From: Undibacter mobilis
Lineage (GTDB): Bacteria; Pseudomonadota; Alphaproteobacteria; Rhizobiales; Xanthobacteraceae
Assembly (NCBI RefSeq): GCF_003367195.1
Contig: NZ_QRGO01000001.1
Location: 544,501-608,500, forward strand
Length of the DNA stretch: 64,000 nucleotides
Reading direction: 5' to 3'
Part shown: positions 23,791-42,842 of the stretch, piece after piece
How positions within the stretch are numbered: the stretch's first letter is position 1
Layout: each line of letters begins with the position of its first letter
Notes under the pieces: generated by a model
Database searches by the model: none
What the model was told of the DNA's origin: nothing
Seen by the model: only the letters and a program-made list of their open reading frames with translations
Made by a program: the position numbers and the translations under genes

Positions 23791-24492
23791 CTATTTTGCC
23801 GCCGCCTCGTCGGCAATGCGATAGCCGATTCCCGGTTCGGTCAACACGATCCGTGGATCGTCCGGCTTGTCCTCGATCTTCTGCCGGAGCTGTCCGATAT
23901 AGACGCGCAGATACTGCGTGTCCTCGGTGTGGGCAGGGCCCCAGATCGCGGCGAGGATCTGCTTGTGGGTGAGCACCCGGCCGGCATGCCGCGCCAGGAA
24001 CGAGAGCAGGTCGAACTCCTTGGGCGTCAGCTTGAGTTCGGCGCCGGCGCGGGTGACGCGGTGGCGCACTGCATCGACTTCGAGATTGCCGACGCGCAGC
24101 ACCGGCACCTCGGCCTTGCGCTGCAGGCGGTGGCGCAACGCGGTGCGCATGCGCGCCATCAGCTCGCCGACGGTGAACGGCTTGTTGACGTAGTCGTCGG
24201 CGCCGAGATCCAGCGACTCGATCTTCTCGGCCTCGCGCTCGCGCGCCGACAACACGATGATCGGCACGTCCGACCACTCGCGCACGCGGCGGATCACGTC
24301 CTTGCCGTCGCCGTCCGGCAGGCCGAGGTCGAGCAGCACCACGTCCGGCGGGTGCGCGGCAATTGTCTTGATCGCCTCGGCCACCGTGCCGGTGCTGTCC
24401 ATGACGTAATCATTGGCCTCCAGCGCCGGCTTGAGGAAGCGCAGGATCGCGGCCTCGTCATCGACCACCAGAACCGAAATCTTGCCGCTCAT
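23791..24492 (-). CDS. kdpE: Potassium-response regulator KdpE
   Basis: This 233-residue OmpR-type regulator has a receiver domain with the phosphorylated aspartate in VVLLDLGLPDGDGKD and a C-terminal winged helix (LTPKEFDLLSFLARHAGRVL). Phosphorylated by KdpD, it activates kdpFABC when potassium is low. It overlaps kdpD by 4 nt and ends the operon. Confidence 0.96.
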   Translation of the reverse strand: MSGKISVLVVDDEAAILRFLKPALEANDYVMDSTGTVAEAIKTIAAHPPDVVLLDLGLPDGDGKDVIRRVREWSDVPIIVLSAREREAEKIESLDLGADDYVNKPFTVGELMARMRTALRHRLQRKAEVPVLRVGNLEVDAVRHRVTRAGAELKLTPKEFDLLSFLARHAGRVLTHKQILAAIWGPAHTEDTQYLRVYIGQLRQKIEDKPDDPRIVLTEPGIGYRIADEAAAK

Positions 24493-27155: not shown

Positions 27156-27177
27156 CCGGCTCCTCGCAGGAGCCAAT

Positions 27178-27780
27178 CTAGGACTTCATCGCATCGAGCG
27201 CGAGGTTAAGCTTCAACACATTCACACGCGGCTCACCCAGAAAGCCCAGGGTCCGGTCCTCGATATGGGAGCCGATCAACGTCCGCAAAGTCTGCTCCGG
27301 GATACCCCTCGCCTTGGCGACCCGCGGCACCTGAAACAGCGCCGCCTCCGGCGACAGGTCGGGATCAAGGCCGCTGGCGGACGTCGTCACCAGATCGACG
27401 GGCACGGCCGTGCCCGGGTTTTCCTTCTTCAGCGTCTCGACGTCGTCCTTCAGCCGGTCGGCCAGCGCCTTGCTGGTGGGGCCGAGATTGGAGCCGCCCG
27501 AATTCGCCGCGTTGTAGGGCGTCGAAACGCTCTTGGTCGCGTCCTTCGGGTCAGGTCCCATCGTCGCCGACAGACGGCCATGGAAATACTTGTCGCTGGT
27601 GAAGGGCTGGCCGATCAGCGCCGAGCCGATCACCTTGCCATCCTTCTCGATCAGGCTGCCCTGCGCCTGAACCGGGAAGATGGCGCCGGCAATGCCGGTC
27701 ATGGCCAGCGGATAGATGAGACCCGTGACGATGGTCAGTGCGACCAGCAGCACGATGGCGGGGCGAATTTCCTTCAACAT
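27178..27780 (-). CDS. kdpC: Potassium-transporting ATPase subunit KdpC
   Basis: A 200-residue subunit with one N-terminal membrane helix and the family motifs ARFHGRLS-like [20 protein letters not shown] and [16 protein letters not shown]. It stabilises the KdpFAB complex. It begins 71 nt after kdpB and is followed at once by kdpD, so structural and sensor genes probably share a transcript. Confidence 0.96.
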
Positions 27781-27851
27781 GAGTTGTCTCCATATTCTCT
27801 GGCGCGCGATCTTTTCCGAAAGCCGGTGCGTACTTTTCGGGATCGCGCGCG

Positions 27852-29924
27852 TTAGGCCAGATGCAAGGCGGTGACGATGATGTCGATCGCCTTGATACCG
27901 ATGAATGGCAGGGCGATACCGCCAAGTGCGTAGATCAGCAGATTGCGGCGCAGCAGCGCCGCGGCGCCGACCGGGCGATACTTCACGCCCTTCAGCGCCA
28001 GCGGGATGAGCGCGATGATGATCAGCGCATTGAAGATGATCGCCGACAGGATGGCGCTCTGCGGCGTCGACAGGCCCATGATGTTCAGAACGCCGAGTTG
28101 CGGATAGAAGGCCGCGAACATCGCCGGAATGATGGCGAAGTATTTGGCGACATCGTTGGCGATCGAGAATGTGGTCAGCGCGCCGCGCGTCATCAGCAAC
28201 TGCTTGCCAATTTCGACGACTTCGATGAGCTTGGTCGGATCGCTGTCGAGATCGACCATGTTGCCGGCCTCGCGGGCGGCCTGCGTGCCCGACTGCATGG
28301 CGACGCCGACATCGGCCTGGGCCAGCGCCGGCGCATCATTGGTGCCGTCGCCGCACATTGCGATCAGGCGTCCTTGAGCCTGCTCGTTGCGGATGTAGCG
28401 CAGCTTGTCCTCGGGCGTGGCCTCGGCGATGAAATCGTCAACGCCGGCTTCGGATGCGATTGAGGCCGCGGTCACCGGATTATCGCCGGTAATCATCACG
28501 GTCTTGATACCCATGCGGCGCAGCGCCGCGAAGCGATCTTTCACATCCGGCTTCACCACATCCTTGAGATGAATGACGCCGAGGATGCGGCCGTCCTCGA
28601 CGAGACCAAGCGGCGTGCCGCCGGCGCGGGCGATCTTGTCCACGGCCGCGCGGAACGCCGGCGGTTCGGCGACGTCGCGCCCCGCCTGCTCACGCGCGAA
28701 CTTGAGCACCGAGTCGATGGCGCCCTTGCGCAGCTTCCGGCCGCCGACATCGACGCCGGACAGGCGCGTCATGGCGGAGAACTCGATGAACTTGGCACCC
28801 TCAGGCACGCCCTGGCGCTTCACATTATATTTGTCCTGCACCAGCGTGATGATGGAACGGCCTTCCGCCGTCTCGTCGGCATCGCTGGCGAGCAATGCCG
28901 CCTCCGCCGCTTCTCGCTCGGTGACGCCCGGCACCGGGATGATCTCGGTCGCCAGCCGGTTGCCGAAAGTGATGGTGCCGGTCTTGTCCAGCAGCAGCGT
29001 ATCGACGTCGCCCGCCGCCTCGACGGCGCGGCCGGACATGGCCAGCACGTTGAAGCGCACCAGGCGATCCATGCCGGCAATGCCGATGGCCGAGAGCAAC
29101 GCGCCAATGGTGGTCGGAATGAGGGTCACGAACAGCGCAACCAGGACCAGCACTGAAATCGCGCCGCCGGCATACATCGCATAACTCGGAATGCTCGCGG
29201 TGGCGAAGACGAAGATGATGGTGAGGCCGACGAGCAGAATGTTGAGAGCGATCTCGTTCGGCGTCTTCTGCCGTTCCGCACCTTCGACCAGCTTGATCAT
29301 GCGATCGAGGAAGGACGAACCCGGCGACGAGGTGATGCGAATGACAATACGGTCCGAGATAACGGTGGTGCCGCCGGTCACGGCCGACCGGTCGCCGCCC
29401 GACTCGCGGATCACCGGCGCGGATTCGCCGGTCACGGCGGCCTCGTTGACCGAGGCGATGCCTTCGATGATATCGCCGTCGCCGGGAATGATGTCGCCGG
29501 CTTCGCAGACCACGAGATCGCCCGCTTCCAGTTCCTCAGCCACCACGCCTTCGTAGAGCTCGTGATTGTCGGCCGAAAGAAGACGCTTGGCGCGGGTCTG
29601 TGCCCGCGTCTGGCGCAGCGTATCGGCCTGCGCCTTGCCGCGCCCTTCGGCCACGGCTTCGGCGAAATTGGCGAACAGCACGGTGAACCAGAGCCAGACG
29701 ACGATCTGCAACTCGAAGGCAATGCCGGCCACCCCGGTGACGATGTCGCGGACCAGCAGCACGGTGGTCAGCGCCGTCACGATCTCGAGCACAAACATCA
29801 CCGGATTCTTCGCCAGCGTGCGCGGATCGAGCTTGATGAAAGCCTGACCGATCGCCGGCAGCACAATCGTCGGGTCGAGCAGCGACGAGGCCGACATCCG
29901 CTTGCGGACTTTGGACGTTTCCAT
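27852..29924 (-). CDS. kdpB: Potassium-transporting P-type ATPase subunit KdpB
   Basis: The 690-residue catalytic subunit has the phosphorylation motif DKTGTIT, the actuator motif AVTGESAPV and the hinge [16 protein letters not shown], with about seven membrane helices. It hydrolyses ATP to drive potassium uptake through KdpA. Length and motifs are normal. It starts 17 nt after kdpA. Confidence 0.97.
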
Positions 29925-29941
29925 GGACGTAAACTCCGGAA

Positions 29942-31645
29942 TTAGAAGAGCTGGCCGGCCTGCATCGCGAGATGCTCGACGATGGGGCCAAGCGCGAGCG
30001 CCGGGAAGAAGGTGAGACCGCCGACGATGAGGATGACGCCGACCAGAAGACCGACGAACAAGCCACCCGTCGTCGGGAAGGTGCCGGCCGAAACCGCGAC
30101 CATCTTTTTCTGCGCCAGCGACCCGGCAATCGCCATGGCCGGCACGATCATCCAGAAGCGGCCGATGAACATCGCGATGGCGCCGGTCACATTGTAGAAC
30201 GGCGTATTGCCGGTGAGCCCCGCGAAGGCCGAGCCGTTATTGCCGGTCTGCGACGAATAGGCGTACAGCACCTCGGTGAAGCCATGCGGACCGGCATTGG
30301 CCATCGACGCGACCGCGGGCGGATAGACGACGGCAATGGCGGTCCAGCCGAGGATCATCAGCGGCAGGATCAGGATGGCGAGCATCGCCATCTTGACTTC
30401 GCGCGCCTCGATCTTCTTGCCGACATATTCGGGTGTGCGGCCGACCATCAGGCCTGCGACGAACACCGTGAGGATGACGAACAGCAGCATGCCGTAAAGG
30501 CCGGCGCCGACGCCGCCGATGACGATCTCGCCGAGCTGGATATTGATCAGCGGGATCATGCCGCCGAGGGCCGTGAAGCTGTCATGCATGGCGTTGACGG
30601 CGCCGCACGAGGCCGCGGTGGTTATAACGGCGAACAAGGCCGAGCCGACGATACCAAAGCGGACTTCCTTGCCCTCCATGTTGCCGCCGGTGAGACCGAG
30701 CGCGTTCAGCGTGTTCGTGCCGTAGGCTTCGGCCCAGTAGCAGAACAGGACACCGGCCAGGAACAGCACGCCCATGGCGGCAAGGATCGCCCAGCCTTGC
30801 TTCTGATTGCCGACCATGCGGCCGAACACATTGGTGAGCGCCGCGCCGAGCACGAAGATCGACAGCATCTGCACGAAGTTGGACAGCGCCGTCGGGTTCT
30901 CGAAGGGATGCGATGCGTTGGCGTTGAAGAAGCCGCCGCCATTGGTGCCGAGCATCTTGATGGCCACCTGCGAGGCGACCGGGCCGACGGCGATGGTCTG
31001 CTGCGCGCCTTCCAGCGTGGTGGCGTCCACATAGGCGCCCAGCGTCTGCGGGATGCCCTGCCAGACCAGGAACAGCGTGAAGACGATGCAGATCGGGAGG
31101 AGGATGTAGAGCGTACAGCGGGTGATATCGACCCAGAAATTGCCCACGGTTTTCGCCGAGGCGCGCGCAAAGCCGCGGATCAGCGCGACCGCCAGGACGA
31201 TGCCGGTTGCGGCCGACAGGAAGTTCTGGTGCGTCAGACCGAGCATCTGGGTCAGATAGGACAGCGTGCTTTCGCCGCCGTAATTCTGCCAGTTGGTGTT
31301 GGTGATGAAGGAAATCGCGGTATTGAAGGAGAGATCCGACGGTACCGCCGTCATGCCGGCCGGGTTGAACGGCAGCACGCCCTGCAGGCGCAGCAGGGAG
31401 TACAGAACGAGGAAGCCGGCGACGTGGAACAGCAGCATGGCGACGGTGTAGGTCAGCCAATGCTGTTCGCGGGTCTCGTCGACACCGCCGACCCGGTAGA
31501 GCAGGCGCTCGACCGGGCGGAGGACGGGCGACAACAGCGTGCGCTCGCCGTTGAAGACGCGAGTCATATAGCCGCCGATTATGGGGGTGAGCGCCAAGAT
31601 GATGGCGCAGTACAGCGCGATCTGAATCCAGCCGATAATTGTCAT
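29942..31645 (-). CDS. kdpA: Potassium-transporting ATPase channel subunit KdpA
   Basis: This 567-residue channel-like protein has about ten membrane segments and four pore-loop repeats, including [28 protein letters not shown] and [13 protein letters not shown], which form the potassium selectivity filter. It binds and passes potassium in the high-affinity Kdp pump. It begins 9 nt after kdpF. Confidence 0.97.
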
Positions 31646-31744: not shown

Positions 31745-31755
31745 GACCGAAGGTC

Positions 31756-31962: not shown

Positions 31963-31988
31963 TGATCCAGCAATCCCCTCCATCCGTA
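31963..31988 (+). promoter_or_regulatory. RpoE-type ECF promoter before the DUF2177 gene
   Basis: TGATCC (31963-31968), 16-nt spacer, CGTA (31985-31988), 35 nt before the ATG at 32024. The -35 TGATCC is that of the RpoE-ChrR sigma group of Rhodobacter sphaeroides. The same TGATCC-N16-CGTA form is found twice near 34.6 kb at the rpoE operon and its divergent neighbour, which makes chance unlikely. Confidence 0.82.
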
Positions 31989-32023
31989 TCACCTGTGGGG
32001 ATTTTCGTATCTGGAGCGCGACC

Positions 32024-32440
32024 ATGACCTACGCCGTCGCCTATCTCGCCATTCTTCTGCCGTTCGGTCTGCTCGACGCCGTCTGGCTCAGCCTCATGGG
32101 ACCTCGGCTCTATAAGCCAACGCTCGGCGACATTCTGCTGGCGAACGTCAATGTCCCTGCCGCGATTGCCTTCTATCTGATTTATCCGATCGGCATTCTG
32201 ATATTCGCTACCCTGCCCGCTCTGAAGGCCGGTTCGGTGGCACCCGCCCTGATCTATGCCGCGCTGTTCGGTGCTCTGGCCTATGGCACCTACGACCTGA
32301 CCAACCAGGCCACCTTGCGCAATTGGACGCTGCAATTGACGCTTGCCGACATGGCCTGGGGCACGATCGCATCCGGCCTGGCCGGCGCCGCCTCGTACTA
32401 TCTGACACGCACGATCAGCGATTGGCTCGGTATCGCCTAA
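32024..32440 (+). CDS. DUF2177 family membrane protein
   Basis: A 138-residue protein with four hydrophobic segments, matching the DUF2177 family (FGLLDAVWLSLMGPRLY-like opening, central YGTYDLTNQATLRNW, close to the family's YxTYDLTNxAxLxxW). Function is unknown. It has its own ECF promoter and so very likely belongs to the RpoE-ChrR stress response together with the genes downstream, which it faces convergently; its stop overlaps the DUF1295 gene end by 4 nt. Confidence 0.88.
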   Translation: MTYAVAYLAILLPFGLLDAVWLSLMGPRLYKPTLGDILLANVNVPAAIAFYLIYPIGILIFATLPALKAGSVAPALIYAALFGALAYGTYDLTNQATLRNWTLQLTLADMAWGTIASGLAGAASYYLTRTISDWLGIA

Positions 32441-33243
32441 TCTCGGGGCGGGCCAGGGAAGAAGGCATTGGTGCGGCGCTGATAAGCGCGGAAAGCTTCG
32501 CCACGCGAACGCAGCATATGTTTTTCAAGAAGCGGGATGCCCGAGACGTAAACCAGCAACCAGTACATACAGGCCGCTCCGGACAACGCTATAAATCCCC
32601 ACGGATACCCTCCGGTGAGATCGATGGCGATCAAGGGATAGGCCAACCAGCCGAGAGCCTCGAAGAAGTAATTTGGGTGACGCGATAATTTCCACAAACC
32701 GGCCTCGTTTACACCGCCGTTGTTGGCCGGGTTCGACTTGAAGCGATTAAGTTGCCAATCGGCAATACCCTCGCCGCAAACCGCGATAATCATGACCAGG
32801 ATCGCCACGGCATCCCAGACGCTGAGCCGGGCGTCCGGCCGATGCGCCGCAACAAATATCGACATCACCAGCGGCAGGCCAGCCATCGCCTGAACCTGCA
32901 AGAACCAGAACATCTGGCGCGGCGCATCACTGCCCCAGGCCTCGATTTTCTCGGCATAACGTGGATCGTTCGAGATTCCTGCGGAGCGGCTGGCGATATG
33001 AACACCGAGCCGCAAGGCCCAGATCGCGGCGAAGGAAGCGACCAGAATTTGCCGCGTCGGCCACCCACTGCCCATCGGAACGAGCGCACCGGCCATGCCG
33101 GTCAAACCGACACCGAACGTCCAGATCGTATCGACCCAGCCGGAATTGCCGCTGCGCTGCTGAACAAGCCACGCCACCGTCATGATCGCCGACAAAGCGA
33201 TCGACATCGCCATGAGAGCGACAAGAAACTCAAAAACAGTCAT
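32437..33243 (-). CDS. DUF1295 family membrane protein (steroid 5-alpha-reductase-like)
   Basis: A 268-residue protein with about six or seven hydrophobic segments and the C-terminal motif NEAGLWKLSRHPNYFFEALG then WLAYPLIA, the hallmark of DUF1295 and of the isoprenylcysteine-methyltransferase/steroid-reductase-like fold. Members may reduce or methylate lipids using NADPH or SAM; the substrate is unknown. It begins 4 nt after chrR in the same direction and is probably in the rpoE-chrR operon. Confidence 0.87.
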   Translation of the reverse strand: MTVFEFLVALMAMSIALSAIMTVAWLVQQRSGNSGWVDTIWTFGVGLTGMAGALVPMGSGWPTRQILVASFAAIWALRLGVHIASRSAGISNDPRYAEKIEAWGSDAPRQMFWFLQVQAMAGLPLVMSIFVAAHRPDARLSVWDAVAILVMIIAVCGEGIADWQLNRFKSNPANNGGVNEAGLWKLSRHPNYFFEALGWLAYPLIAIDLTGGYPWGFIALSGAACMYWLLVYVSGIPLLEKHMLRSRGEAFRAYQRRTNAFFPGPPRD

Positions 33244-33247
33244 GGCA

Positions 33248-33907
33248 CTAGATGCGCACGAATGGCTGCATCATCCTTCCGATAAGACCGGACAGCTTCA
33301 ACTCGCCCTGCATGGCAACAAGACAAATACACTCCTCGTCGCCATCGATTACCGGCGAGTGCCCGTCATCATGATCGGCATCGTCGCAATCGCCGGCGGC
33401 GTAGCGGCCGCCTTCGTGAATGAAGGCGCCGGACAAGACGCAGGTCAGCTCGGTGCCGGTGTGACTGTGTTCCGGAATTCTCAAGCCCGGCGCCGCCTTG
33501 AGCATGAATACGCGCGCGCCGCCCTCGGAGGGAACCTTCACCACACGATGATGCAGTCCGGGCGCAACCCAGCGCCAGGGGCCCAGTTCGTATCCGAGCA
33601 AGTGCTTCTGTTCGGGCTGCCAGACCGGCACAATCGTCCGCTTTTCGTTTCGATTGCGAGTCTGCCCGCGTGAGCTATTCGCTTCGCGATCGAGCAGCGC
33701 CAGCGCATGCAGCGCCGCTCCCGGCGCCATTGCCACCGGATCGATCTCGGCCAGCATCTGACCGCCGGCTTCTTCCAATGCCGCTATATATTCGCGGCAA
33801 TTACCACACATCGCGAGATGACTGGCAACGACCAGACTGCGGCCCTCGTCCAGGGTACCAGCGGCGAATTCCGCCAGCGTCGTATTCTTCGGATGGTGTC
33901 GGCTCAT
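33248..33907 (-). CDS. chrR: Zinc-binding anti-sigma factor ChrR
   Basis: This 219-residue protein has an N-terminal anti-sigma domain with zinc ligands matching those of R. sphaeroides ChrR (His4/5, His30, Cys34, Cys37 in HLAMCGNC) and a C-terminal cupin domain (PEHSHTGTELTCVLSGAF, and a His/Asp-rich DDADHDDGH). It holds RpoE inactive until singlet oxygen or organic peroxide triggers release. It overlaps rpoE by 4 nt. Confidence 0.93.
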   Translation of the reverse strand: MSRHHPKNTTLAEFAAGTLDEGRSLVVASHLAMCGNCREYIAALEEAGGQMLAEIDPVAMAPGAALHALALLDREANSSRGQTRNRNEKRTIVPVWQPEQKHLLGYELGPWRWVAPGLHHRVVKVPSEGGARVFMLKAAPGLRIPEHSHTGTELTCVLSGAFIHEGGRYAAGDCDDADHDDGHSPVIDGDEECICLVAMQGELKLSGLIGRMMQPFVRI

Positions 33908-34482
33908 GTCAGGTCACCAAGACAATCTTTCAGGCGGTTCATCGCAAGTCGTATTCTCGATTTGACCGTCCCGAGCGGGATCTTAAGTTCGCGCGCAATG
34001 TCGCCATGCGCTTGGCCTTCAAAAAACGACAGACGTACCACCTTGAGCTGGTCATCCGTCAGATGAGACAGGGCGGCACGGACACGCCGTTCACGCTCGC
34101 TAGCATCGAGCTCCTCGTCTGGCTGCGGCGGCGCGTCCAGAAACTCGTTTGATTCAAGGTCGAATAGTTTGCTGCGCTGCTCGCGACGAGCAACATCGAT
34201 GCGCAGGTTGCGCGCTATGGTAAAGATCCAGGCTGAAGCGCCCGCGCGCGCGCGGTCAAATTGCTCGGCCTTGCGCCATACCGTAAGCATGGCCTCTTGC
34301 GCCAACTCCTCGGCGGCGGCAGCCGGCATATTGGATCGCATCAAGACGGCTTTGATGCGCGGCGCGTAGTAATCGAACAAGGCTGTAAAGGCCTCACGGT
34401 CGCGCGTGGCGGCGACCGCCTCGATCAGACGAGCCAGATCGGCGGAACATGTGATCTCGTAAGCCCGGGTCGGCATGTTCAT
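33904..34482 (-). CDS. rpoE: ECF sigma factor RpoE (ChrR-controlled group)
   Basis: About 192 residues from the ATG at 34482 (MNMPTRAYEITCSADLARLI). It has region 2 (FTALFDYYAPRIKAVLMR, EELAQEAMLTVWRKA) and region 4 (LTDDQLKVVRLSFFEGQAHG, IPLGTVKSRIRLAMNRLK). The open frame continues upstream to 34716, but that part crosses the promoter. It directs transcription of an envelope and lipid photo-oxidative stress regulon in relatives. ChrR is encoded directly downstream. Confidence 0.93.
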   Translation of the reverse strand: MNMPTRAYEITCSADLARLIEAVAATRDREAFTALFDYYAPRIKAVLMRSNMPAAAAEELAQEAMLTVWRKAEQFDRARAGASAWIFTIARNLRIDVARREQRSKLFDLESNEFLDAPPQPDEELDASERERRVRAALSHLTDDQLKVVRLSFFEGQAHGDIARELKIPLGTVKSRIRLAMNRLKDCLGDLT

Positions 34483-34565
34483 CGCCTGCGAAAACTCCGC
34501 CCGAATCTGGTGTGATTTGGCGCCACTCTCCACGTCGCTCCGATACACTACTTGCATCGGCAATA

Positions 34566-34591
34566 TACGTGATCCGGCCCGGTTTGGATCA
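34566..34591 (-). promoter_or_regulatory. RpoE-type ECF promoter of rpoE-chrR
   Basis: On the minus strand TGATCC (34591-34586), 16-nt spacer, CGTA (34569-34566), about 84 nt before the rpoE ATG. It indicates that the sigma factor transcribes its own operon. Only 3 nt separate it from the divergent promoter at 34595. Confidence 0.85.
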
Positions 34592-34594
34592 CGG

Positions 34595-34620
34595 TGATCC
34601 AGCCGGTATTCCGGACCGTA
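34595..34620 (+). promoter_or_regulatory. RpoE-type ECF promoter of the flavin oxidase/CFA operon
   Basis: TGATCC (34595-34600), 16-nt spacer, CGTA (34617-34620), about 56 nt before the chosen ATG at 34676. It is back-to-back with the rpoE promoter. Its position also shows that an ATG-like start at 34622 cannot be used, since it would lie at the transcription start. Confidence 0.85.
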
Positions 34621-34675
34621 CTTGTTCCTGACAGCGAGCGACCCGACCGGTCGCGGCCAGAGGCAGTTGGGAATC

Positions 34676-36025
34676 ATGTCTGAAAACGGCACGCAGCCCC
34701 TAAAAATCGCAATCATTGGCAGCGGAATTTCGGGAATGGCCGCGGCCTGGCTCCTGTCTGGCCGTCATCAGGTGACGGTCTACGAGCGCGCCGACCGGAT
34801 TGGCGGCCACAGTAATACCGTCGACGCTCGCACCCCAAATGGCACAGTGGCGGTCGATACCGGTTTCATCGTGTACAACCGGCAGACTTATCCAAATCTG
34901 ACCGCACTGTTCGAGCACCTCAATGTGGCTTCGGAGGCGACCGAAATGTCCCTCGGCGTATCGCTTGAGGGCGGCGCCCTGGAATATGCCGGGGAGAATC
35001 TGGCCACCGTGTTTGCGCAAAAGCGCAATCTGTTTAGCCCGCGTTTCTGGTCGATGCTGCGCGATCTGCGACGCTTCTATAAAGACGCGCCGGACGACAT
35101 GCGTCGACTGGGGCAGCAAGCGACACTCGGCGATTATCTCAAGCTCGGCGGCTATGGCGAAGCCTTCCGCGACGATCACTTGCTGCCAATGGCGGCGGCG
35201 ATCTGGTCGGCGCCAGCGCAGGCCATGCTCGATTACCCGGCCGCCGCCTTTATCCGATTCCAGGAGAACCATGGCCTGTTGAAGTTGAAAGACCGGCCGG
35301 TATGGCGCACCGTCAAGGGTGGCAGCCGCAGCTACGTAACGCAGCTGACCAAGCCGTACGCCGAACGCATCCGGCTCAACCAGACGATTCTGTCGATCAC
35401 ACGCCACGTCGATGGCGTGGATATCACGAGCGCCGGCTCCGGCCCCGAACGTTTCGATCACGTCGTATTGGCGACGCACGCCGATCAGGCGCTGGCCTTG
35501 CTGACGGAGCCGAGCGCGGCCGAGCGCACATTGCTGACGCCGTTTCGATATAGCCGCAATCTGGCTGTGCTGCATAGCGATCAACGACTCATGCCGAAGC
35601 GCCGCAAGGTGTGGTCAAGCTGGAACTACATCAGCGGCGCCCAAAACGCAGACGCGCTGACCGTTACTTACTGGATGAACCGGCTGCAGAACCTCAGGAC
35701 AGATACACCTCTGTTCGTGACGCTCAATCCGGCGCAGCCACCGCACGCCGGCACGATCTTCCATTCGGAGATCTACGAGCACCCCCTGCTCGATACGGCA
35801 GCCATGACAGCGCAAACCAAATTATGGTCGCTGCAAAGGCGCCACCGCACATGGTTCTGCGGCGCCTATTTTGGCGCCGGATTCCATGAAGACGGACTGC
35901 AATCGGGCCTGGCAGTCGCCGAAGCGCTTGGCGGCGTGCGACGGCCCTGGAATGTGGAGAATGAATCGGGGCGCATTCATATGCACGTCAATGAGCTGGC
36001 CGCCGTGTCGGAGCAGGCCACATGA
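34676..36025 (+). CDS. FAD-dependent amine-oxidase-like protein of the CFA cluster
   Basis: About 449 residues from the ATG at 34676 (MSENGTQPLKIAIIGSG). It has the FAD motif AIIGSGISGMAAAWLLS, then RIGGHSNTVDA and VDTGFIVYNRQTYPNL, typical of the flavoproteins found with DUF1365 and CFA-synthase-like genes. These are thought to oxidise or desaturate fatty acyl chains; in R. sphaeroides RpoE-dependent relatives take part in furan fatty acid formation. It overlaps the DUF1365 gene by 4 nt. Confidence 0.88.
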   Translation: MSENGTQPLKIAIIGSGISGMAAAWLLSGRHQVTVYERADRIGGHSNTVDARTPNGTVAVDTGFIVYNRQTYPNLTALFEHLNVASEATEMSLGVSLEGGALEYAGENLATVFAQKRNLFSPRFWSMLRDLRRFYKDAPDDMRRLGQQATLGDYLKLGGYGEAFRDDHLLPMAAAIWSAPAQAMLDYPAAAFIRFQENHGLLKLKDRPVWRTVKGGSRSYVTQLTKPYAERIRLNQTILSITRHVDGVDITSAGSGPERFDHVVLATHADQALALLTEPSAAERTLLTPFRYSRNLAVLHSDQRLMPKRRKVWSSWNYISGAQNADALTVTYWMNRLQNLRTDTPLFVTLNPAQPPHAGTIFHSEIYEHPLLDTAAMTAQTKLWSLQRRHRTWFCGAYFGAGFHEDGLQSGLAVAEALGGVRRPWNVENESGRIHMHVNELAAVSEQAT

Positions 36026-36855
36026 GCACCGAAGCGCTCGCGGCTGTGGGGCATTCCTGCCTCTACACAGGGACGGTTATGCACCGGCGCCTCAAGCCGC
36101 ATGCGCATCGGCTGAACTATCGAGCGTTCTGGTGTCTGCTCGATCTCGACGAATTGCCTGACTTGTCCGCCCGGCTGACATTTTTCTCGCTCGAAAGATT
36201 TAACCTGTTCGGATTCCGTACCACCGATCACGGCGACGGCTCCAACCGCCCCTTGCGCGCTCAAGTCGACGCTCATCTCGCCACAGCCGGGATTGATCTT
36301 AAAGGGGGCGCCATCCGGCTTTTATGCATGCCGCGCTTTCTCGGCTTTGTGTTCAATCCGATCAGCGTTTATTATTGTTATGATCGTTCGGGTGCGCTCA
36401 GGGCTCTGCTTTATCAGGTGCATAACACGTTCCGGCAGCGCCACAGTTATCTGATCCCGGTCGATAGCAGGCCGGGAGAACCCATCGAGCAGCGCTGCCT
36501 AAAGGCGTTTTATGTGTCACCGTTCATGGACATGGATATCGCCTACCGCTTTCGTGTGCAGCCGCCGGACGAACGCGTTGCGCTCGTCATCGAGTGCTCA
36601 GACGCGGATGGCCCTGTGTTGATCGCTTCACTCGCCGGCGAACGTCAGGCGCTCACCGATACGGCTCTTCTGCGCGTCTTCCTTTCGTTTCCGCTGATGA
36701 CACTCAAAGTCGTTGCCGGCATTCACTGGGAAGCGCTTAAACTGTGGATCAAGGGCATGCGGCTGCGTCCGCGCCCGCCAGCCCCCTCACCCATCACTAT
36801 TGCAACGCAGCCGCTGCCGAATACGTCCCAAGCTTTCGGGAATAGCCATGACTGA
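36022..36855 (+). CDS. DUF1365 family protein
   Basis: A 277-residue protein with the DUF1365 opening YTGTVMHRRLKPHAHRLNY and the core MPRFLGFVFNPISVYYCYD and VSPFMDMDIAYRF. The biochemical role is unknown; it almost always sits with a flavin oxidase and a CFA-synthase-like methyltransferase, as here. Its start overlaps the flavin gene and its end overlaps the next gene by 8 nt, so the three are translationally coupled. Confidence 0.9.
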   Translation: MSTEALAAVGHSCLYTGTVMHRRLKPHAHRLNYRAFWCLLDLDELPDLSARLTFFSLERFNLFGFRTTDHGDGSNRPLRAQVDAHLATAGIDLKGGAIRLLCMPRFLGFVFNPISVYYCYDRSGALRALLYQVHNTFRQRHSYLIPVDSRPGEPIEQRCLKAFYVSPFMDMDIAYRFRVQPPDERVALVIECSDADGPVLIASLAGERQALTDTALLRVFLSFPLMTLKVVAGIHWEALKLWIKGMRLRPRPPAPSPITIATQPLPNTSQAFGNSHD

Positions 36856-38173
36856 CCTGACATCCGACGTTGCCAGAGCCATTCAAGCGCCGGCGGCGCA
36901 CGCATCGCGACCACGAAGAGTGCCGTTTTTCTCACGGCAATTGCAGCGGCTGCTGGCTCAGGTCACCTATGGCGATATCACCATCGTGCTACCGAACGGC
37001 GAAACGCTTCGCCGGCAGGCGTCCAGTCCGGGGCCTAGCGCCAAACTTGTGATCCGCCGCTGGCGCGCGATTTGGCGGCTGATCAACGGCGGCGAACTCG
37101 GATTTGCGGAGGCCTATATTGCCGGTGACTGGTGGACACCCAATCTTGCAGCGTTTCTGGAATTCGGCGCCCGCAATGACACCGGCATGCCGCACGCAAT
37201 ATCCGGCTCGCTGGTGCATCGCCTCATCGTACGGCTGCGGCATCTGAGAAACCGCAATACCCGACGCGGCAGCCGCCGCAACATTGCAGCGCATTACGAT
37301 CTCGGCAATGCGTTCTACAAACTATGGCTGGACCGCGGCATGCAATACTCCGCCGCGCTGTTCACGGACAACGACCAAACGCTCGAAGCCGCGCAGAACG
37401 CCAAGCTCGCACGTATTTTGCAACTTCTGGATATCAGCGGCGGTGAGCGCGTGCTGGAAATCGGCTGCGGCTGGGGCGCGTTGATGGACCGTCTCACGTC
37501 GCATTGCGATGTGACCGGCATCACGCTCTCTGCTGAACAACTCGCCTTCACCCGCGATCGCATCGCGGGAGCGCCGAATGCTCAGGCGCGGCTGCAGGAT
37601 TACCGCGACATCGCCGAAACCTTTGACCGCATCGTCTCGATCGAGATGATCGAAGCCGTCGGCGAGCGCTATTGGCCTGTCTATTTCGAGAAATTGCGCA
37701 GCGCTTTAGAACCTGGCGGGACGGTGCTTCTGCAGGCGATTACCATCGATGTGGCGCGCTTCGACAAGTATCGGCAGCAGCCCGACTTTATTCAACGCTA
37801 TATCTTCCCCGGCGGCGTATTGCCCACCGTCGACATCATCCGCCAGCAGGCGGCGGGCGCAGGCCTCGAACTGACGATACACCAGCCATTCGGTTCAAGC
37901 TACGCGCAAACGCTCGCCATCTGGCGCGAACGGTTTCTTATGGCCTGGCCGCAGATCAAGCAGCTCGGTTTTGACGACCGCTTCAAGCGGATGTGGCACT
38001 ATTATCTCTGCTATTGCGAGGCGGGCTTCCGTTCCGGCGCCATCGATGTGGGCTTTTTCAAATTCAAACCCGCTGTCGCCGACGCTGCGCGTTGCGGCCA
38101 GTTCATGACAGCGCCGGCGGCATCTGTGAGTGCTGCCAGAGCCGAAAAATCGAGCGTAAGGATCGCTCCTTAA
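36848..38173 (+). CDS. Cyclopropane-fatty-acid-synthase-like SAM methyltransferase
   Basis: About 441 residues from the ATG at 36848; the open frame extends upstream inside DUF1365 but without family character. It has HYDLGNAFYKLWLDRGMQYS, the SAM-binding motif VLEIGCGWGAL and RYIFPGGVLPTV, all typical of CFA synthases acting on membrane phospholipid acyl chains. Two bicarbonate-site residues of true cyclopropane synthases are changed: Cys to Ala (MQYSAALF instead of MQYSCAYW) and His to Gln (LLQAITID instead of LLHTIG). A methyl-transfer product other than a cyclopropane is possible. Confidence 0.88.
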   Translation: MTDLTSDVARAIQAPAAHASRPRRVPFFSRQLQRLLAQVTYGDITIVLPNGETLRRQASSPGPSAKLVIRRWRAIWRLINGGELGFAEAYIAGDWWTPNLAAFLEFGARNDTGMPHAISGSLVHRLIVRLRHLRNRNTRRGSRRNIAAHYDLGNAFYKLWLDRGMQYSAALFTDNDQTLEAAQNAKLARILQLLDISGGERVLEIGCGWGALMDRLTSHCDVTGITLSAEQLAFTRDRIAGAPNAQARLQDYRDIAETFDRIVSIEMIEAVGERYWPVYFEKLRSALEPGGTVLLQAITIDVARFDKYRQQPDFIQRYIFPGGVLPTVDIIRQQAAGAGLELTIHQPFGSSYAQTLAIWRERFLMAWPQIKQLGFDDRFKRMWHYYLCYCEAGFRSGAIDVGFFKFKPAVADAARCGQFMTAPAASVSAARAEKSSVRIAP

Positions 38174-38286: not shown

Positions 38287-39357
38287 TCATGGCTTAAATA
38301 CGAAGCCAGGTTTAATCTCCACATCCGCGGGTATGGGCTGGAGGTCGGAGAACAGGTCCGGGTATGTCTTCATCACGCTGAGGATGAACTTAGGCTCGAT
38401 ATGCTTGTTCACATCGAACACCGACTTGATCACTCCCAGCCGTTGCAGCGTATCCTGAGCCTTCCACAGCGCACGATAATTATGTGCGGAAATGCGGCGG
38501 TCTACTTGCTGAATGTTATATTGCATCGCAGTCTCGGCCACGTCGAGCTTCAATCCGGGAATCCAGCGCGTACCGATACCGGCGGCCTGTTTGGGATTCT
38601 TACGCATCCACTGGTCGGCCTCCGACACGGCCGCCAGGAATTTCTCGATCGTCGGGCCATTCTTCTCCATCCACGGCCGCAGCGCGACATTGAAACCGAG
38701 ATAAGAAATGACGTCGCCGCCGCGAATCACCTCGATTGCGCCCGGCACATCCTTCATGCCGATCACCGGTGCCGGGTCCCAGCAGACGAACGCATCCACG
38801 CCTTTGGCAAGCAACGCCACCGTCATTTCCGGAGGCGGCGTGTTGACAAGCGTGACATCGGTGGGAGCGAGGCCCGCCTTCTCGAGCAAGCCGAGAATGT
38901 AGAGATGATTGATCGTGCCGAACGAGGTTGCGATCTTCTTGCCCTTAAGACTTTTTAGGTCGCCTTTAACGATGCCTGAATCCCCGTTGGCAACCAGCGC
39001 AAGCGTGGCATCAGATCCGAGTTTGGTGGCGTTGCCGCTAAAGTTGCCGAAGAACACAAGATCCATGCCGCGCAGAATGGCGCCGATGGAGGGCACGCCC
39101 GCCTGCACCATATCGGTTTCACCCGCCTGCAAAGCGTTGAGCGCATCGACGCCCGTGGCATAGGGGCGCGCGATGGTTACGTCGAGCCCGTATTTCTCGA
39201 AGAAGCCGCGCTCGACCGCAATTGGCAGCGCCAGCATGTCTACCGCAGCGACCATGCCGACCTTGAGTTTTACCGGATCCTTGGCCTGAGCCAGTGCCGG
39301 CGATGGCAACAGCAGCAAGGCGAAAAGCAGCGTCATCATCCGTCGCATCTCATTCAC
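38287..39357 (-). CDS. ABC transporter substrate-binding protein (NMT1/SsuA-like)
   Basis: A 356-residue binding protein with a Sec signal peptide (LLFALLLLPSPALAQA) and the NMT1/SsuA-type fold (VERGFFEKYGLDVTIA, ALQAGETDMVQAGVPS). Such proteins bind sulfonates, nitrate, pyrimidine precursors or aromatic acids; the ligand here cannot be told from sequence. It is the last gene of a six-gene operon in which each gene overlaps or nearly touches the next. Confidence 0.9.
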   Translation of the reverse strand: MNEMRRMMTLLFALLLLPSPALAQAKDPVKLKVGMVAAVDMLALPIAVERGFFEKYGLDVTIARPYATGVDALNALQAGETDMVQAGVPSIGAILRGMDLVFFGNFSGNATKLGSDATLALVANGDSGIVKGDLKSLKGKKIATSFGTINHLYILGLLEKAGLAPTDVTLVNTPPPEMTVALLAKGVDAFVCWDPAPVIGMKDVPGAIEVIRGGDVISYLGFNVALRPWMEKNGPTIEKFLAAVSEADQWMRKNPKQAAGIGTRWIPGLKLDVAETAMQYNIQQVDRRISAHNYRALWKAQDTLQRLGVIKSVFDVNKHIEPKFILSVMKTYPDLFSDLQPIPADVEIKPGFVFKP

Positions 39358-39677
39358 CCTCCAGGTTGAAGCGGCTCGACGCGCGTAACCCAGTAAGGAC
39401 GGGCGACGGTTGTCAGGTCCGCTCGTTTCACTCCACGAACTTCAACGGCATTTTCTTGTGTTCCAGACACCCTGCCATAGGTCTGGAACAGCTGAACGTG
39501 GAAACGCTCCGGCGGGAACGGCAGGGTAATCAGCACGTTTACTTTTTCCGGAGCGTTTCCAAAGTCGGCAATCTTGCGCGGCGCTGCGATTGTGAGCCAA
39601 AGCTGCCAAGCAATGTAGCAGCCGGCCACCGCCAGCAGGATGTGCGCCTTTCGCGATTTGAGGGCGTCGCGCAACAT
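39354..39677 (-). CDS. Small single-helix membrane protein in the ABC operon, unknown
   Basis: I do not recognise this 107-residue protein. It has one hydrophobic helix at about residues 11-31 (HILLAVAGCYIAWQLWLTIA) and a soluble, probably periplasmic, remainder rich in beta-type residues (VLITLPFPPERFHVQLFQTY). It lies between the ATPase gene (3-nt gap) and the binding-protein gene (4-nt overlap), so it is surely co-expressed. A docking or accessory role for the importer is plausible but unproven. Confidence 0.75.
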   Translation of the reverse strand: MLRDALKSRKAHILLAVAGCYIAWQLWLTIAAPRKIADFGNAPEKVNVLITLPFPPERFHVQLFQTYGRVSGTQENAVEVRGVKRADLTTVARPYWVTRVEPLQPGG

Positions 39678-39680
39678 GAC

Positions 39681-40439
39681 TCACGCCGATCTCACGAGTT
39701 GGAGAACGCGGCCAGTCAGAGATTTGAACCGATCGTTTTCGTTGAGATCGTCCCAGACACGAGGCCGCGGCAGGTCCACGGCGATCTCGTCGAGTACCCG
39801 GCCCTTTGACAGCGCCACAACTCGATTGGCGAGAAAAACAGCCTCGGCAACGTCATGGGTAATGAAGATGACCGTCGGCCGTTTCGCTTCCCATATCCGC
39901 GTCAATTCCTCTTGCAATGTCATGCGGGTTTGCGCATCCACGCTGGCGAAGGGCTCGTCCATCAACAAAACGTCCGGCTCGTTGGCGAGCGCCCGCGCCA
40001 CGCCAACACGCTGCTGCATACCGCCGGATAGCTCGTTGGGATAACGCCCTGCAGCTTCTGAAAGCTTGGCGAGCGCGAGATATTCACGCGCGATCTTCTC
40101 GCGCTCCGCCCGGCCAACGCCGCGCATTTTTGGTCCGAACGCGACATTTTCTAGGACGGTCCGCCACGGAAACAGCGCGAAAGACTGAAATACCACGCCG
40201 CGATCTGGCCCCGGCCCTTTTACAGGCTTGCCACCGACAAGAATTTCCCCGCTGGAGTGCGGGATGAAGCCGGCGATCAGGTTGAGGATGGTCGACTTGC
40301 CACAGCCCGACGGGCCCACAATGGAGATGAAGTCGCCCTCGGCCACGCTCAGCGAAACATCGTGCACGGCCGTCACCTGCGTGCCGGCATAGGCGTCGAA
40401 GTAGGTCTTTGACAGATTGCGAATGACCAGATTCTTCAT
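39681..40439 (-). CDS. ABC transporter ATP-binding protein (SsuB/TauB-like)
   Basis: About 252 residues from the ATG at 40439 (MKNLVIRNLSKTYF). The open frame continues for another 260 codons upstream, but that stretch is out of frame with the permease and has no family character. Walker A is GPSGCGKST, signature LSGGMQQRVGVARAL and Walker B VLLMDEPFASVD. It drives import with the two permeases upstream, overlapping the nearer one by 4 nt. Confidence 0.93.
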   Translation of the reverse strand: MKNLVIRNLSKTYFDAYAGTQVTAVHDVSLSVAEGDFISIVGPSGCGKSTILNLIAGFIPHSSGEILVGGKPVKGPGPDRGVVFQSFALFPWRTVLENVAFGPKMRGVGRAEREKIAREYLALAKLSEAAGRYPNELSGGMQQRVGVARALANEPDVLLMDEPFASVDAQTRMTLQEELTRIWEAKRPTVIFITHDVAEAVFLANRVVALSKGRVLDEIAVDLPRPRVWDDLNENDRFKSLTGRVLQLVRSA

Positions 40440-41245
40440 CGCGTCACCAGCCCCCAGCGTTGCCCGGTGGCTCGTTCGACCGGCGCCAGGATCCAGCTGT
40501 CGACGATGTACCAGAGGATCCCGAGGATAATCATTCCAAGCAGTATCTCGACCACCGAGCCGGCGCGCCGCGCATCGAACATCAGAAAGCCGATGCCGCT
40601 GGTGCCGACGATGATCTCGGTTGCGATCAGTGCGCGCCAGCCGTAGCCAAGGCCGTTGCGTAACCCGGTCATGATGTTGGGAAGCGCGCCGGGCAATATC
40701 ACTTCCCAGACCATTCGGGCGCGCGAGGCTCCGAGGCTCAGAGCAGCCCGATGCATGGTAATCGGGATCGAGCGCACGCCCAGTACCGTGTTGAGGACCA
40801 CGGGGAAGATCACTGTGTAGACTATGACAACGGTCATGGTGACGAGACCGTAACCGAACCAAATCACGAGGATCGGCAGCCATGCGATGTCGCCAATGGC
40901 CTGGAAGAACAGCAACAGCGGCCAGAGCGCACGGTGCGCTCGCGGGCTGAGCCCTACCAAGATGCCGAGTGGAACGCCGAGCGCAACGCCCCAGAACGTG
41001 CCGACAGCAAGGCGCACCACGCTGTCTTGCAAGTACTCGGGAAGGATGCCCGTATAAACCAGCGAACGGAACGAATGCATGACCTCCCCAGGTCCTGGCA
41101 GGAAGACGCGTGGAAATATCTGTAGCTCGGAGATGATCCACCAGGCTGCGATCACGGGCAGGAACGGCGCAATGGAGCCGATCGATGGCCAGCGCGCCGT
41201 CAGGCGCACGTAGTGGCTCCATAGCTTGAGCGGAAATTCCATCAT
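40436..41245 (-). CDS. ABC transporter permease (SsuC/TauC-like), second
   Basis: About 269 residues from ATGATG at 41245, chosen because it gives a 4-nt ATGA overlap with the preceding permease gene; the longer frame to 41692 is a shadow. It has about six hydrophobic segments and the EAA loop RAALSLGASRARMVWEVILP. It pairs with the ATPase downstream. Confidence 0.93.
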   Translation of the reverse strand: MMEFPLKLWSHYVRLTARWPSIGSIAPFLPVIAAWWIISELQIFPRVFLPGPGEVMHSFRSLVYTGILPEYLQDSVVRLAVGTFWGVALGVPLGILVGLSPRAHRALWPLLLFFQAIGDIAWLPILVIWFGYGLVTMTVVIVYTVIFPVVLNTVLGVRSIPITMHRAALSLGASRARMVWEVILPGALPNIMTGLRNGLGYGWRALIATEIIVGTSGIGFLMFDARRAGSVVEILLGMIILGILWYIVDSWILAPVERATGQRWGLVTR

Positions 41246-42018
41246 GCGCGCTGCACCATTCCCCAGCGCTCGATCGTGCTGCGCTCGATCGGTGCCAGCA
41301 ACAGTCGGTCGAGCATCAGCCACAGGACGCCGATGATGACCATGCCGAGGACAATCACCTCGGTCTTGTAGTAGTCGCGCGCCACAAAGAGCATGTAACC
41401 AAGCCCCGCATTGGTGGCGATCATCTCGGCCGCGATCAAGCCGCGCCAGGCAAAGCCCAGTCCGGTGCGTATACCGGTGACGATGTTGGGAAGCGCGCCG
41501 GGCAGCAGTACCTCGGTCAACATCGCCCATCGGCTTGCACCGAGCGATGCGGCCGCGTTGCGCACATGTAGGGGAATGGTCGAGACGCCGAGCAGAGTGT
41601 TGTACGTCACGATGAAGAACACGGCATTGAAGATGACGAAAGTGATGGCGCCAAAGCCATAGCCGAACCACAACGTCGCGATGGGGATCCACGCGATGCC
41701 TGCTAGCACCGAGAAAAACCTGAACAACGGCGTCAGGAATGCGGAAACAACAGGACTGATGCCCATTGCCACACCCATCGGAATGGCGACCAAGAGCGCA
41801 AGCACCGTGCCGACCGCGACACGCAGGAGGCTCGCGCCAATGTGCTGAATAAGAGTGCCGTCCTGTATTCCCTCAACTCCAGCCCGAACCACAGAGATAA
41901 GGTGGGGAAACAGCCGAGGATTGACGTCGAAGTAAGGCACCAGAACAGCCCAAAGGACGAGCAGCACTGCAAAGGGAGCGCAAAACCAAAGCACTGAAGA
42001 GAACCAGTGTCGCTTCAT
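41242..42018 (-). CDS. ABC transporter permease (SsuC/TauC-like), first
   Basis: A 258-residue permease with about six hydrophobic segments and the EAA loop NAAASLGASRWAMLTEVLLP. It resembles its downstream partner closely in the loop region, so the channel is a heterodimer formed by gene duplication, whereas most SsuC/TauC importers use two copies of one permease. It overlaps the GntR gene by 4 nt. Confidence 0.92.
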   Translation of the reverse strand: MKRHWFSSVLWFCAPFAVLLVLWAVLVPYFDVNPRLFPHLISVVRAGVEGIQDGTLIQHIGASLLRVAVGTVLALLVAIPMGVAMGISPVVSAFLTPLFRFFSVLAGIAWIPIATLWFGYGFGAITFVIFNAVFFIVTYNTLLGVSTIPLHVRNAAASLGASRWAMLTEVLLPGALPNIVTGIRTGLGFAWRGLIAAEMIATNAGLGYMLFVARDYYKTEVIVLGMVIIGVLWLMLDRLLLAPIERSTIERWGMVQRA

Positions 42019-42842
42019 TGCCTTTGCCTCAGGTCATAAGGATCGCTTCGACGAGCTTGCCGACGCCGCGGTCCATTACTTCGCTTGGCCAATTTGGATT
42101 GGGTGTAGCCAAGGACCTGCTCCATGGCGTTGCGAGCTTTTTCGGCGTCGCCTTCTTCGATGGCGCGGGCCGTGGCGGCATGATTGGGAATATTATCTTC
42201 GAACCAGCCATCGACTCTGTCGACCGCGACGACGAAAACCGCGCTCAGAATCGTGTCGATGGCGCCACGGAAGCCTTGCAATACCGGATTGTGCGTGGCG
42301 TCCAGAATAGCGAGGTGAAAGGCCTTGTCCGCGGCGGTTGCGCTGATTTGACTGTCGGCGCTTTCCATTGCTCGCAGGGCTGAACTAATCCGCTGCCGGT
42401 CTGCTTTAGTTGCACGCGCGGCAGCAAGCGCAGCGGCGGCTGGCTCAATGATCGAGCGAACTTCCTGGACGGCCAATAGCAATTGGACGTCGGGCTTGTC
42501 CTGGCCGATCAGCCAACTCAACACGTCGCGATCAAGCAGGCTCCAATCGCGCCGCGGCAATACGCGGGTGCCGTGGCGGGGCTGAACGCTGATGAGTCCT
42601 TTGCCTGACAGCGTTTTGATTGCCTCACGAATCACGCCGCGACCCACGCCGAAGCGGATTTCGAGGTCGTTTTCCGGGGGCAGTACCGCGCCGGCCGGAA
42701 TGATTTCTTGGGCGATCTCGCAGCCGAGTGTCGTCAGCACCGCGTGGATACGGCGCGGCTTCGAGCGCTTTCCGCCGGATTTGGCGCGCTTGGTACGCAC
42801 GAAATGTTCGCTCCCCGCCGTCAGTTCTGGGCTGACTGGCAC
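42015..42842 (-). CDS. GntR-family (FCD) transcriptional regulator of the ABC operon
   Basis: This 275-residue regulator begins at a GTG (42842); the first 30 residues are basic and not conserved. A winged helix follows (LEIRFGVGRGVIREAIKTLS), then an FCD ligand domain (EVRSIIEPAAAALAA, AFHLAILDATHNPVLQ). It is translated together with the importer genes by a 4-nt overlap, so it is likely to sense the imported compound. Upstream (42843-43026) the 8-mer CATCCGAT occurs twice. Confidence 0.9.
   Translation of the reverse strand: MPVSPELTAGSEHFVRTKRAKSGGKRSKPRRIHAVLTTLGCEIAQEIIPAGAVLPPENDLEIRFGVGRGVIREAIKTLSGKGLISVQPRHGTRVLPRRDWSLLDRDVLSWLIGQDKPDVQLLLAVQEVRSIIEPAAAALAAARATKADRQRISSALRAMESADSQISATAADKAFHLAILDATHNPVLQGFRGAIDTILSAVFVVAVDRVDGWFEDNIPNHAATARAIEEGDAEKARNAMEQVLGYTQSKLAKRSNGPRRRQARRSDPYDLRQRQ

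What the first reader, a model, noticed from the sequence alone, without database searches (positions are those of the whole stretch)
31963..38173. RpoE-ChrR lipid-stress module defined by three identical ECF promoters
Three sites with the exact form TGATCC-N16-CGTA occur at 31963 (+), 34591 (-) and 34595 (+), each placed just upstream of a gene start: DUF2177, rpoE-chrR-DUF1295, and flavin oxidase-DUF1365-CFA-like. TGATCC is the known -35 of the R. sphaeroides RpoE-ChrR group, which answers singlet oxygen. The two central promoters are back to back with 3 nt between. The module links DUF2177 and DUF1295, both of unknown function, to acyl-chain modification.
Basis: partly seen in the sequence, partly recalled or inferred. 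Interest (0 to 1): 0.72.

Follow-up and report, generated by a model that had tools for sequence, protein, structure and literature searches.

The report
Light-stress regulon making furan membrane lipids
A bacterial stress switch with three matching promoters most likely turns on genes that build furan fatty acids, membrane lipids that soak up singlet oxygen, together with two uncharacterised membrane proteins that many related bacteria keep beside these genes.

Summary
Three exact TGATCC-N16-CGTA sites stand at 31963(+), 34591(-) and 34595(+); this is the printed ECF11 consensus (PMC5507510, passages). The genome has 8 N16 sites; 3 are here, and one each opens onto a photolyase and a molybdopterin oxidoreductase ORF.

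The 'flavin oxidase-DUF1365-CFA-like' operon is ufaD-ufaO-ufaM by family and order: the furan fatty acid pathway proven in R. sphaeroides and R. palustris (PMC7380195).

New here: DUF2177 and DUF1295 are recurrent partners. Of 46 divergent rpoE/ufaD regions, window included, 45 carry both promoters. DUF2177 has its own such site in 51 of 141 loci (plus window) and UfaD or UfaO nearby in 85 of 140. The published core regulon, as restated in PMC5507510, lists neither DUF. DUF1295 matches steroid/sterol-reductase folds; DUF2177 matches no solved fold. A Chlamydomonas singlet-oxygen gene list also holds CFA, DUF1365, DUF2177 and DUF1295 (PMC4067076).

Both DUFs also occur without furan genes. Known system, two probable new parts, chemistry untested.

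The parts
31963..31988 (+). ECF11-type promoter TGATCC-N16-CGTA upstream of DUF2177
   Evidence: Exact match. Sites of 9 or 10 of 10 bases lie at -40 to -110 of DUF2177 in 50 of 140 other loci.
32024..32440 (+). DUF2177 gene, 138 aa, four-helix membrane protein
   Evidence: PF09945 141.5 bits, cut-off 26.9; model pLDDT 97.2 with 4 helices; no PDB sequence hit
32437..33243 (-). DUF1295 gene, 268 aa, third gene of the rpoE operon, steroid/sterol-reductase fold
   Evidence: PF06966 213.8 bits and Steroid_dh 24.3 bits, cut-off 22.6; 4 nt after the chrR stop; fold and profile matches
33248..33907 (-). chrR, zinc anti-sigma factor with cupin-like domain
   Evidence: TIGR02451 194.3 bits, cut-off 124.5; Cupin_7; H-X3-C-X2-C and H-X-H-X3-E read from the translation
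33904..34482 (-). rpoE, ECF sigma factor (ECF11 type by its partner and promoter)
   Evidence: Sigma70_r2 and r4_2, TIGR02937; overlaps the chrR start
34566..34591 (-). ECF11-type promoter of the rpoE-chrR-DUF1295 operon
   Evidence: Exact match; a site of 9 or 10 of 10 on this side in 46 of 46 regions, window included
34595..34620 (+). ECF11-type promoter of the ufaD-ufaO-ufaM operon
   Evidence: Exact match; a site of 9 or 10 of 10 on this side in 45 of 46 regions, window included
34676..36025 (+). ufaD-like flavin oxidoreductase/desaturase
   Evidence: PF01593 Amino_oxidase; order D-O-M as in R. palustris RPA2571-2569 (PMC7380195)
36022..36855 (+). ufaO-like DUF1365 protein
   Evidence: PF07103 285.9 bits; UfaO is a DUF1365 protein (PMC7380195)
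36848..38173 (+). ufaM-like SAM-dependent fatty acyl methylase (CMAS family)
   Evidence: PF02353 279.6 bits; below the NCBIfam cut-offs for two CFA synthase equivalogs (256.8 vs 400 and 251.4 vs 600)

Best explanation
This is a sigma-E (ECF11)/ChrR regulon centred on furan fatty acid (FuFA) synthesis. Singlet oxygen or organic hydroperoxides lead to loss of ChrR and free RpoE. RpoE transcribes rpoE-chrR-DUF1295 and ufaD-ufaO-ufaM from back-to-back promoters, and DUF2177 from a third. UfaM methylates cis-vaccenoyl chains, UfaD desaturates them and UfaO is needed to form the furan ring; the furan lipid then scavenges singlet oxygen. DUF1295 is most likely an NADPH-dependent membrane reductase of the steroid-reductase superfamily that reduces unsaturated carbonyl lipids left when furans or unsaturated chains react with singlet oxygen. 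DUF2177 is a four-helix membrane partner in the same chemistry. Shown here: promoter sequences, operon layout, families, conservation, DUF1295 fold. Taken from work on relatives: ChrR sensing and the UfaM/D/O reactions. Inferred: the reductase step, its substrate and any DUF2177 role.
Confidence: 0.72

Rival explanations
1. DUF2177 and DUF1295 are regulon hitch-hikers with a general membrane role (for example carbonyl or isoprenoid lipid reduction) and no special tie to furan lipids.
For: G185 and G336 carry both without a DUF1365 match or ChrR over cut-off; the Lactococcus lactis control has both without ChrR or DUF1365; a low-identity DUF2177 subgroup (9 family-sample loci, 31-36 percent to the window protein) lacks sites and module neighbours; 8 of 77 named loci have DUF1295 near DUF2177 but no UfaD, UfaO or ChrR; RSP1087, 1088 and 1089 are operon members not needed for furan synthesis (PMC7380195).
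Against: DUF1365 family in 34 of 37 DUF2177 genomes; G112 and G293, without a ChrR match, still have DUF2177 beside UfaD/UfaO.
Confidence: 0.35
2. DUF1295 is a SAM-dependent methyltransferase of the ICMT kind that adds a further methyl to a lipid, as FufM does in R. palustris.
Confidence: 0.15
3. The sites are chance matches, or serve another ECF sigma factor.
For: Degenerate matches are close to chance (59 vs 48.2); no model specific to ECF11 sigma factors was run on RpoE.
Against: Both central sites kept in 45 of 46 diverged regions; N16 excess; same consensus found by ChIP-seq for an ECF11 sigma (PMC5507510).
Confidence: 0.03
4. The CFA-like enzyme makes ordinary cyclopropane fatty acids and the module is a cyclopropane stress response.
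For: CMAS domain; the R. sphaeroides and P. syringae relatives are annotated CFA synthase (PMC5507510 Table 2).
Against: Scores below the NCBIfam CFA equivalog cut-offs; sits in a D-O-M operon like the proven furan genes of R. palustris (PMC7380195).
Confidence: 0.08

Closest known systems
Rhodobacter sphaeroides sigma-E (ECF11)-ChrR singlet-oxygen regulon
   Same: rpoE-chrR operon, photolyase and ufa genes as targets (PMC6852236 abstract and sections 7, 15, 16; PMC5507510 passages); promoter form as printed for the P. syringae ECF11 sigma.
   Different: Here ufaD-O-M is one operon divergent from rpoE, DUF1295 is the third gene of the rpoE operon, and DUF2177 has its own promoter. Neither DUF is in the core list restated in PMC5507510 (Dufour 2008 itself was not held).
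Rhodopseudomonas palustris RPA2571-2569 furan fatty acid genes (PMC7380195)
   Same: Same three families in the same order D-O-M.
   Different: No product measured here; 'DUF1295' does not occur in that paper's main text, and it is not among the 3 held papers with the word DUF2177.
Steroid 5-alpha-reductase / delta-14 sterol reductase superfamily (7c83, 7bw1, 4quv)
   Different: 10-13 percent identity; no known substrate; catalytic residues of SRD5A2 not mapped.
Chlamydomonas SAK1 singlet-oxygen regulon (PMC4067076 Table 5, passages)
   Same: CFA1, CFA2, DUF1365, DUF2177 and DUF1295 genes are listed among 104 SAK1-dependent induced genes.
   Different: Eukaryotic regulator; homology of the algal proteins to these was not tested here. 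The same paper reports that CFA-like genes are not among the Arabidopsis singlet-oxygen-specific genes.

Membership tests
ECF11 sigma/ChrR system | ChrR-family anti-sigma encoded beside the sigma factor | tested here: met
   TIGR02451 194.3 bits vs cut-off 124.5; the narrower NF051881 not reached, 207.5 vs 300; chrR start overlaps the rpoE stop
ECF11 sigma/ChrR system | Zinc anti-sigma motif and cupin-like C-terminal domain in ChrR | tested here: met
   Cupin_7 56.4 bits over cut-off 27; H-X3-C-X2-C read in the translation; zf-HC2 20.2 bits is below its cut-off 22.2
ECF11 sigma/ChrR system | Autoregulated promoter TGATCC-N16-CGTA | tested here: met
   Sequence only; consensus printed in PMC5507510
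ECF11 sigma/ChrR system | Sigma factor sequence falls in group ECF11 | not tested
   No group-specific model or tree was run; only general ECF families hit
ECF11 sigma/ChrR system | Activation by singlet oxygen or organic hydroperoxide | not testable with these tools
   Needs cells
Furan fatty acid pathway (UfaM/UfaD/UfaO) | CMAS-type methylase, flavin desaturase and DUF1365 protein encoded together | tested here: met
   recurrent order
Furan fatty acid pathway (UfaM/UfaD/UfaO) | Product 9M5-FuFA | not testable with these tools
   Needs GC-MS
Canonical CFA synthase | Score over the NCBIfam equivalog cut-off | tested here: not met
   NF008686 256.8 vs 400 and NF053839 251.4 vs 600 bits
Steroid reductase superfamily (DUF1295) | Fold | tested here: met
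Steroid reductase superfamily (DUF1295) | NADPH binding and C=C reduction | not testable with these tools
   D162, N191, E195 invariant in 60 sequences and aligned to identical residues of 7c83 and 7bw1; catalytic Glu/Tyr of SRD5A2 not mapped
Known solved folds (DUF2177) | Match to a solved structure | tested here: inconclusive

The most novel reading that the evidence does not exclude
DUF1295 and DUF2177 form a lipid repair pair that regenerates furan fatty acids. Singlet oxygen opens the furan to an unsaturated 1,4-dicarbonyl; DUF1295 reduces its double bond with NADPH, and DUF2177 helps close the saturated dicarbonyl back to a furan. Furan lipids would then be renewable rather than sacrificial quenchers, and the same set would serve green algae, in one of which a singlet-oxygen gene list holds CFA, DUF1365, DUF2177 and DUF1295 genes.
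Probability: 0.1. Interest if true: 0.87.

Novelty: new variant of a known kind. Interest (0 to 1): 0.55.

Why it matters
Furan fatty acids are antioxidant lipids of some plants, fish and microbes (PMC7380195); whether cells repair or recycle them after they react is, to my knowledge, open. The locus points to two uncharacterised membrane protein families as probable members of that chemistry, gives a fold-based function for one, and says which genes to delete. The same family names stand together in a Chlamydomonas singlet-oxygen gene list, so one bacterial test would also inform algae.

Tried and rejected

Literature searches behind the statement that I found no held paper linking DUF2177 or DUF1295 to ECF11 or to furan lipids in bacteria: 3 papers; 1; 2; 20 of 177 listed; 5. 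Further searches: 8, 44 (30 of 941 listed), 80 (20 of 1,410 listed). Papers looked at by passages and not used for an argument: PMC3597554 (reports no change of H2O2 sensitivity in an ecf11 mutant), PMC10880074 (scans used 3-6 nt from -10 to start), PMC11313482 (lists the Chlamydomonas DUF1365 gene and CFA2), PMC12712439.

Full report
OBSERVATION. Allowing spacers of 15-19, these are the only matches in 64 kb, all with N16; the shuffled mean is 0.40 and 1 of 100 shuffles reached three. Over the whole 4.10-Mb genome there are 8 N16 matches against 1, 4, 4 and 4 for N14, N15, N17 and N18, and 3 for the backwards pattern. Of the other five N16 matches, one lies 36 bp before a photolyase ORF, one 35 bp before a molybdopterin oxidoreductase ORF (MsrP/YedY-like by eye), one overlaps the opening of an alpha/beta-hydrolase ORF, and two overlap other reading frames. 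Photolyase is a core member of the published ECF11 regulon (PMC5507510, passages).

GENES. Pfam and NCBIfam give DUF2177 (32024-32440 +), DUF1295 (32437-33243 -), ChrR (33248-33907 -), ECF sigma (33904-34482 -), a flavin amine-oxidase-family protein (34676-36025 +), DUF1365 (36022-36855 +) and a CMAS-family methylase (36848-38173 +). rpoE and chrR overlap, DUF1295 follows chrR by 4 nt, and each of the three forward genes overlaps the next, so each set is probably one transcription unit (read by eye). DUF2177 and DUF1295 are convergent and overlap at their stops.

WHAT THE FORWARD OPERON IS. Lemke et al. 2020 (PMC7380195; abstract, two result sections and passages seen) show that RSP1091 (UfaD), RSP1090 (UfaO, a DUF1365 protein) and the methylase UfaM are needed for a methyl-furan fatty acid on phospholipid chains, and that R. 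palustris RPA2571-2570-2569 do the same. The window operon has the same families in the same order D-O-M. The methylase scores below the NCBIfam cut-offs of two CFA synthase equivalogs.

REGULON. The consensus TGATCC-N16-CGTA is printed from ChIP-seq of the P. syringae ECF11 sigma factor PSPTO_1043, which responds to singlet oxygen and t-BOOH (PMC5507510, passages). ChrR passes the TIGR02451 cut-off but not that of the narrower equivalog NF051881. In 46 distinct divergent rpoE/ufaD intergenic regions (window and 45 relatives, all from loci chosen for DUF2177), 45 have both sites at 9/10 or 10/10. The gap between the -35 boxes varies from 1 to 66 nt, so back-to-back promoters are conserved but the 3-nt gap is not.

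DUF2177 AS A REGULON MEMBER. I collected DUF2177 genes three ways. (a) Family sample: 61 genomes, 30 with a match; 27 of the 29 besides the window were fetched. (b) Class sample: 289 genomes, 37 with a match; all 36 besides the window were fetched. (c) 80 named genome loci from an alignment search (the best 80 of 593, so biased to close relatives). In the 64 loci from (a), (b) and the window, the 200 nt upstream hold a 10/10 N16 site in 12 and a 9/10 or better site in 22; the background rate in the same DNA predicts 0.24 and 0.73. Sites at -40 to -110: 12 of 27 (family), 8 of 36 (class), 30 of 77 (named, three duplicates removed), window excluded. Seven of these 50 are in loci without ChrR, DUF1295, UfaD or UfaO in the fetched stretch, so in those the promoter is not just carried along by the cluster. 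Nine family-sample proteins only 31-36 percent identical to the window protein have no such site and no module neighbours.

NEIGHBOURHOOD. Among the 77 named loci UfaD is within the fetched flanks in 61, UfaO in 59, UfaM-type in 61, DUF1295 in 60, ChrR in 46; 5 of the 77 have none of UfaD, UfaO, ChrR or DUF1295. In the family sample UfaD/UfaO is near in 16 of 27, in the class sample in 7 of 36. DUF2177 follows a CMAS-type gene at -3 to 20 nt in 12 loci, DUF1295 at 4 and -3 nt in L181 and L205, and ChrR at 13 nt in L121. Ten of the 12 CMAS genes score only 72-94 bits to the window UfaM, so they may be a paralogue; L185 and L221 score 388 and 416. In G112 and G293, where no ChrR match is listed, DUF2177 still sits beside UfaD/UfaO.

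CO-OCCURRENCE. In the class sample the DUF1365 family is in 34 of 37 genomes with DUF2177 and 119 of 252 without (Fisher p 8.7e-8); ChrR over cut-off in 29 of 37 vs 85 of 252 (p 3.5e-7); DUF1295 at 145 bits or more (my threshold) in 16 of 37 vs 23 of 252 (p 1.1e-6). Relatedness of genomes is not corrected for. Against: G185, G243 and G336 have DUF2177 without DUF1365, and the Lactococcus lactis control has DUF2177 and DUF1295 but no ChrR or DUF1365 match; the Caulobacter vibrioides control has all four. The two DUFs therefore probably have a chemistry of their own that is recruited to the furan module.

DUF2177. Model from 78 sequences: pLDDT 97.2, four helices. Invariant D18, W21, Y30, F50, Y51, Y87, T89, Y90, D91, N94, W101, D109 look like an intramembrane active or binding site (inference). 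No solved fold matches.

OTHER LIGHT-RELATED OCCURRENCES. In Chlamydomonas, Table 5 of PMC4067076 (passages seen) lists CFA1, CFA2, DUF1365, DUF2177 and DUF1295 genes among 104 SAK1-dependent, singlet-oxygen-induced genes. In the passages seen the authors compare only CFA with R. sphaeroides; each of the three DUF names occurs once in the main text. They also state that genes like CFA are not among the Arabidopsis singlet-oxygen-specific genes. A 2021 review (PMC8491031, passages) says that furan modification in Chlamydomonas is being investigated. Arabidopsis UfaM/UfaD and UfaO homologues are reported on lipid droplets (PMC10940516, passages). DUF2177 is also reported in operons flanking heliorhodopsin genes (PMC11109279, one passage).

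MECHANISM AND CONFIDENCE. Regulon membership of the three units: about 0.93. Forward operon makes furan fatty acid: about 0.85. DUF1295 an NADPH reductase: about 0.6. Its substrate being unsaturated carbonyl lipids from the singlet-oxygen reaction: about 0.3. DUF2177 working with DUF1295: about 0.4. Furan regeneration: about 0.1. That furans open to unsaturated dicarbonyls with singlet oxygen, and that saturated 1,4-dicarbonyls can close to furans, is recalled chemistry, not from a call.

VERDICT. A sound observation and a sound interpretation, sharpened to a furan fatty acid regulon. The system is known; the repeated presence of DUF2177 and DUF1295 in it I did not find described in the held library, which lacks the key 2008 comparative paper.

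Noticed in passing
34568-34593: The rpoE promoter holds an inverted repeat CGTGATCC-N10-GGATCACG that covers the -35 and abuts the -10; a third TGATCC lies on the + strand at 34570. It could be an operator or chance.
   Followed up: no
L087, L132, L142, L145, L197 and others, about 1.3 kb downstream of the DUF2177 start: In many relatives a second CMAS-type methylase gene lies between DUF2177 and DUF1295; the window lacks it. It may be a further furan or cyclopropane methylase.
   Followed up: no
L001 and L002 (G000:C1:252873 and G000:C1:330401): Two further N16 sites stand at a molybdopterin oxidoreductase ORF and an alpha/beta hydrolase ORF, likely extra regulon members; an alpha/beta hydrolase family also recurs in 15 of 141 loci.
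   Followed up: partly
L081, L083-L086, L137, L139, L140, L143: A distinct DUF2177 subgroup of the family sample (31-36 percent identity to the window protein) with no ECF11 site and no module neighbours; function separate and unknown.
   Followed up: partly
24489-31645 (-): A kdpABC-kdpD potassium uptake operon (by eye from translations) is divergent from DUF2177, with two very small ORFs near 31745 and 31839 that look like kdpF and an extra small peptide.
   Followed up: no
38287-42842 (-): Substrate-binding protein, ATPase and permeases of an ABC importer plus a GntR-type regulator (by eye) follow the module; no link seen.
   Followed up: no
L165, L200 and 13 other loci: A recurrent membrane protein of about 207 aa with a sub-threshold MASE7 match (22.0 vs 26.2 bits) sits near DUF2177 in 15 of 141 loci.
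   Followed up: no
control genome Lactococcus lactis: Has both DUF2177 and DUF1295 although it has no ChrR or DUF1365 match, hinting that the two DUFs form a functional pair of their own.
   Followed up: no
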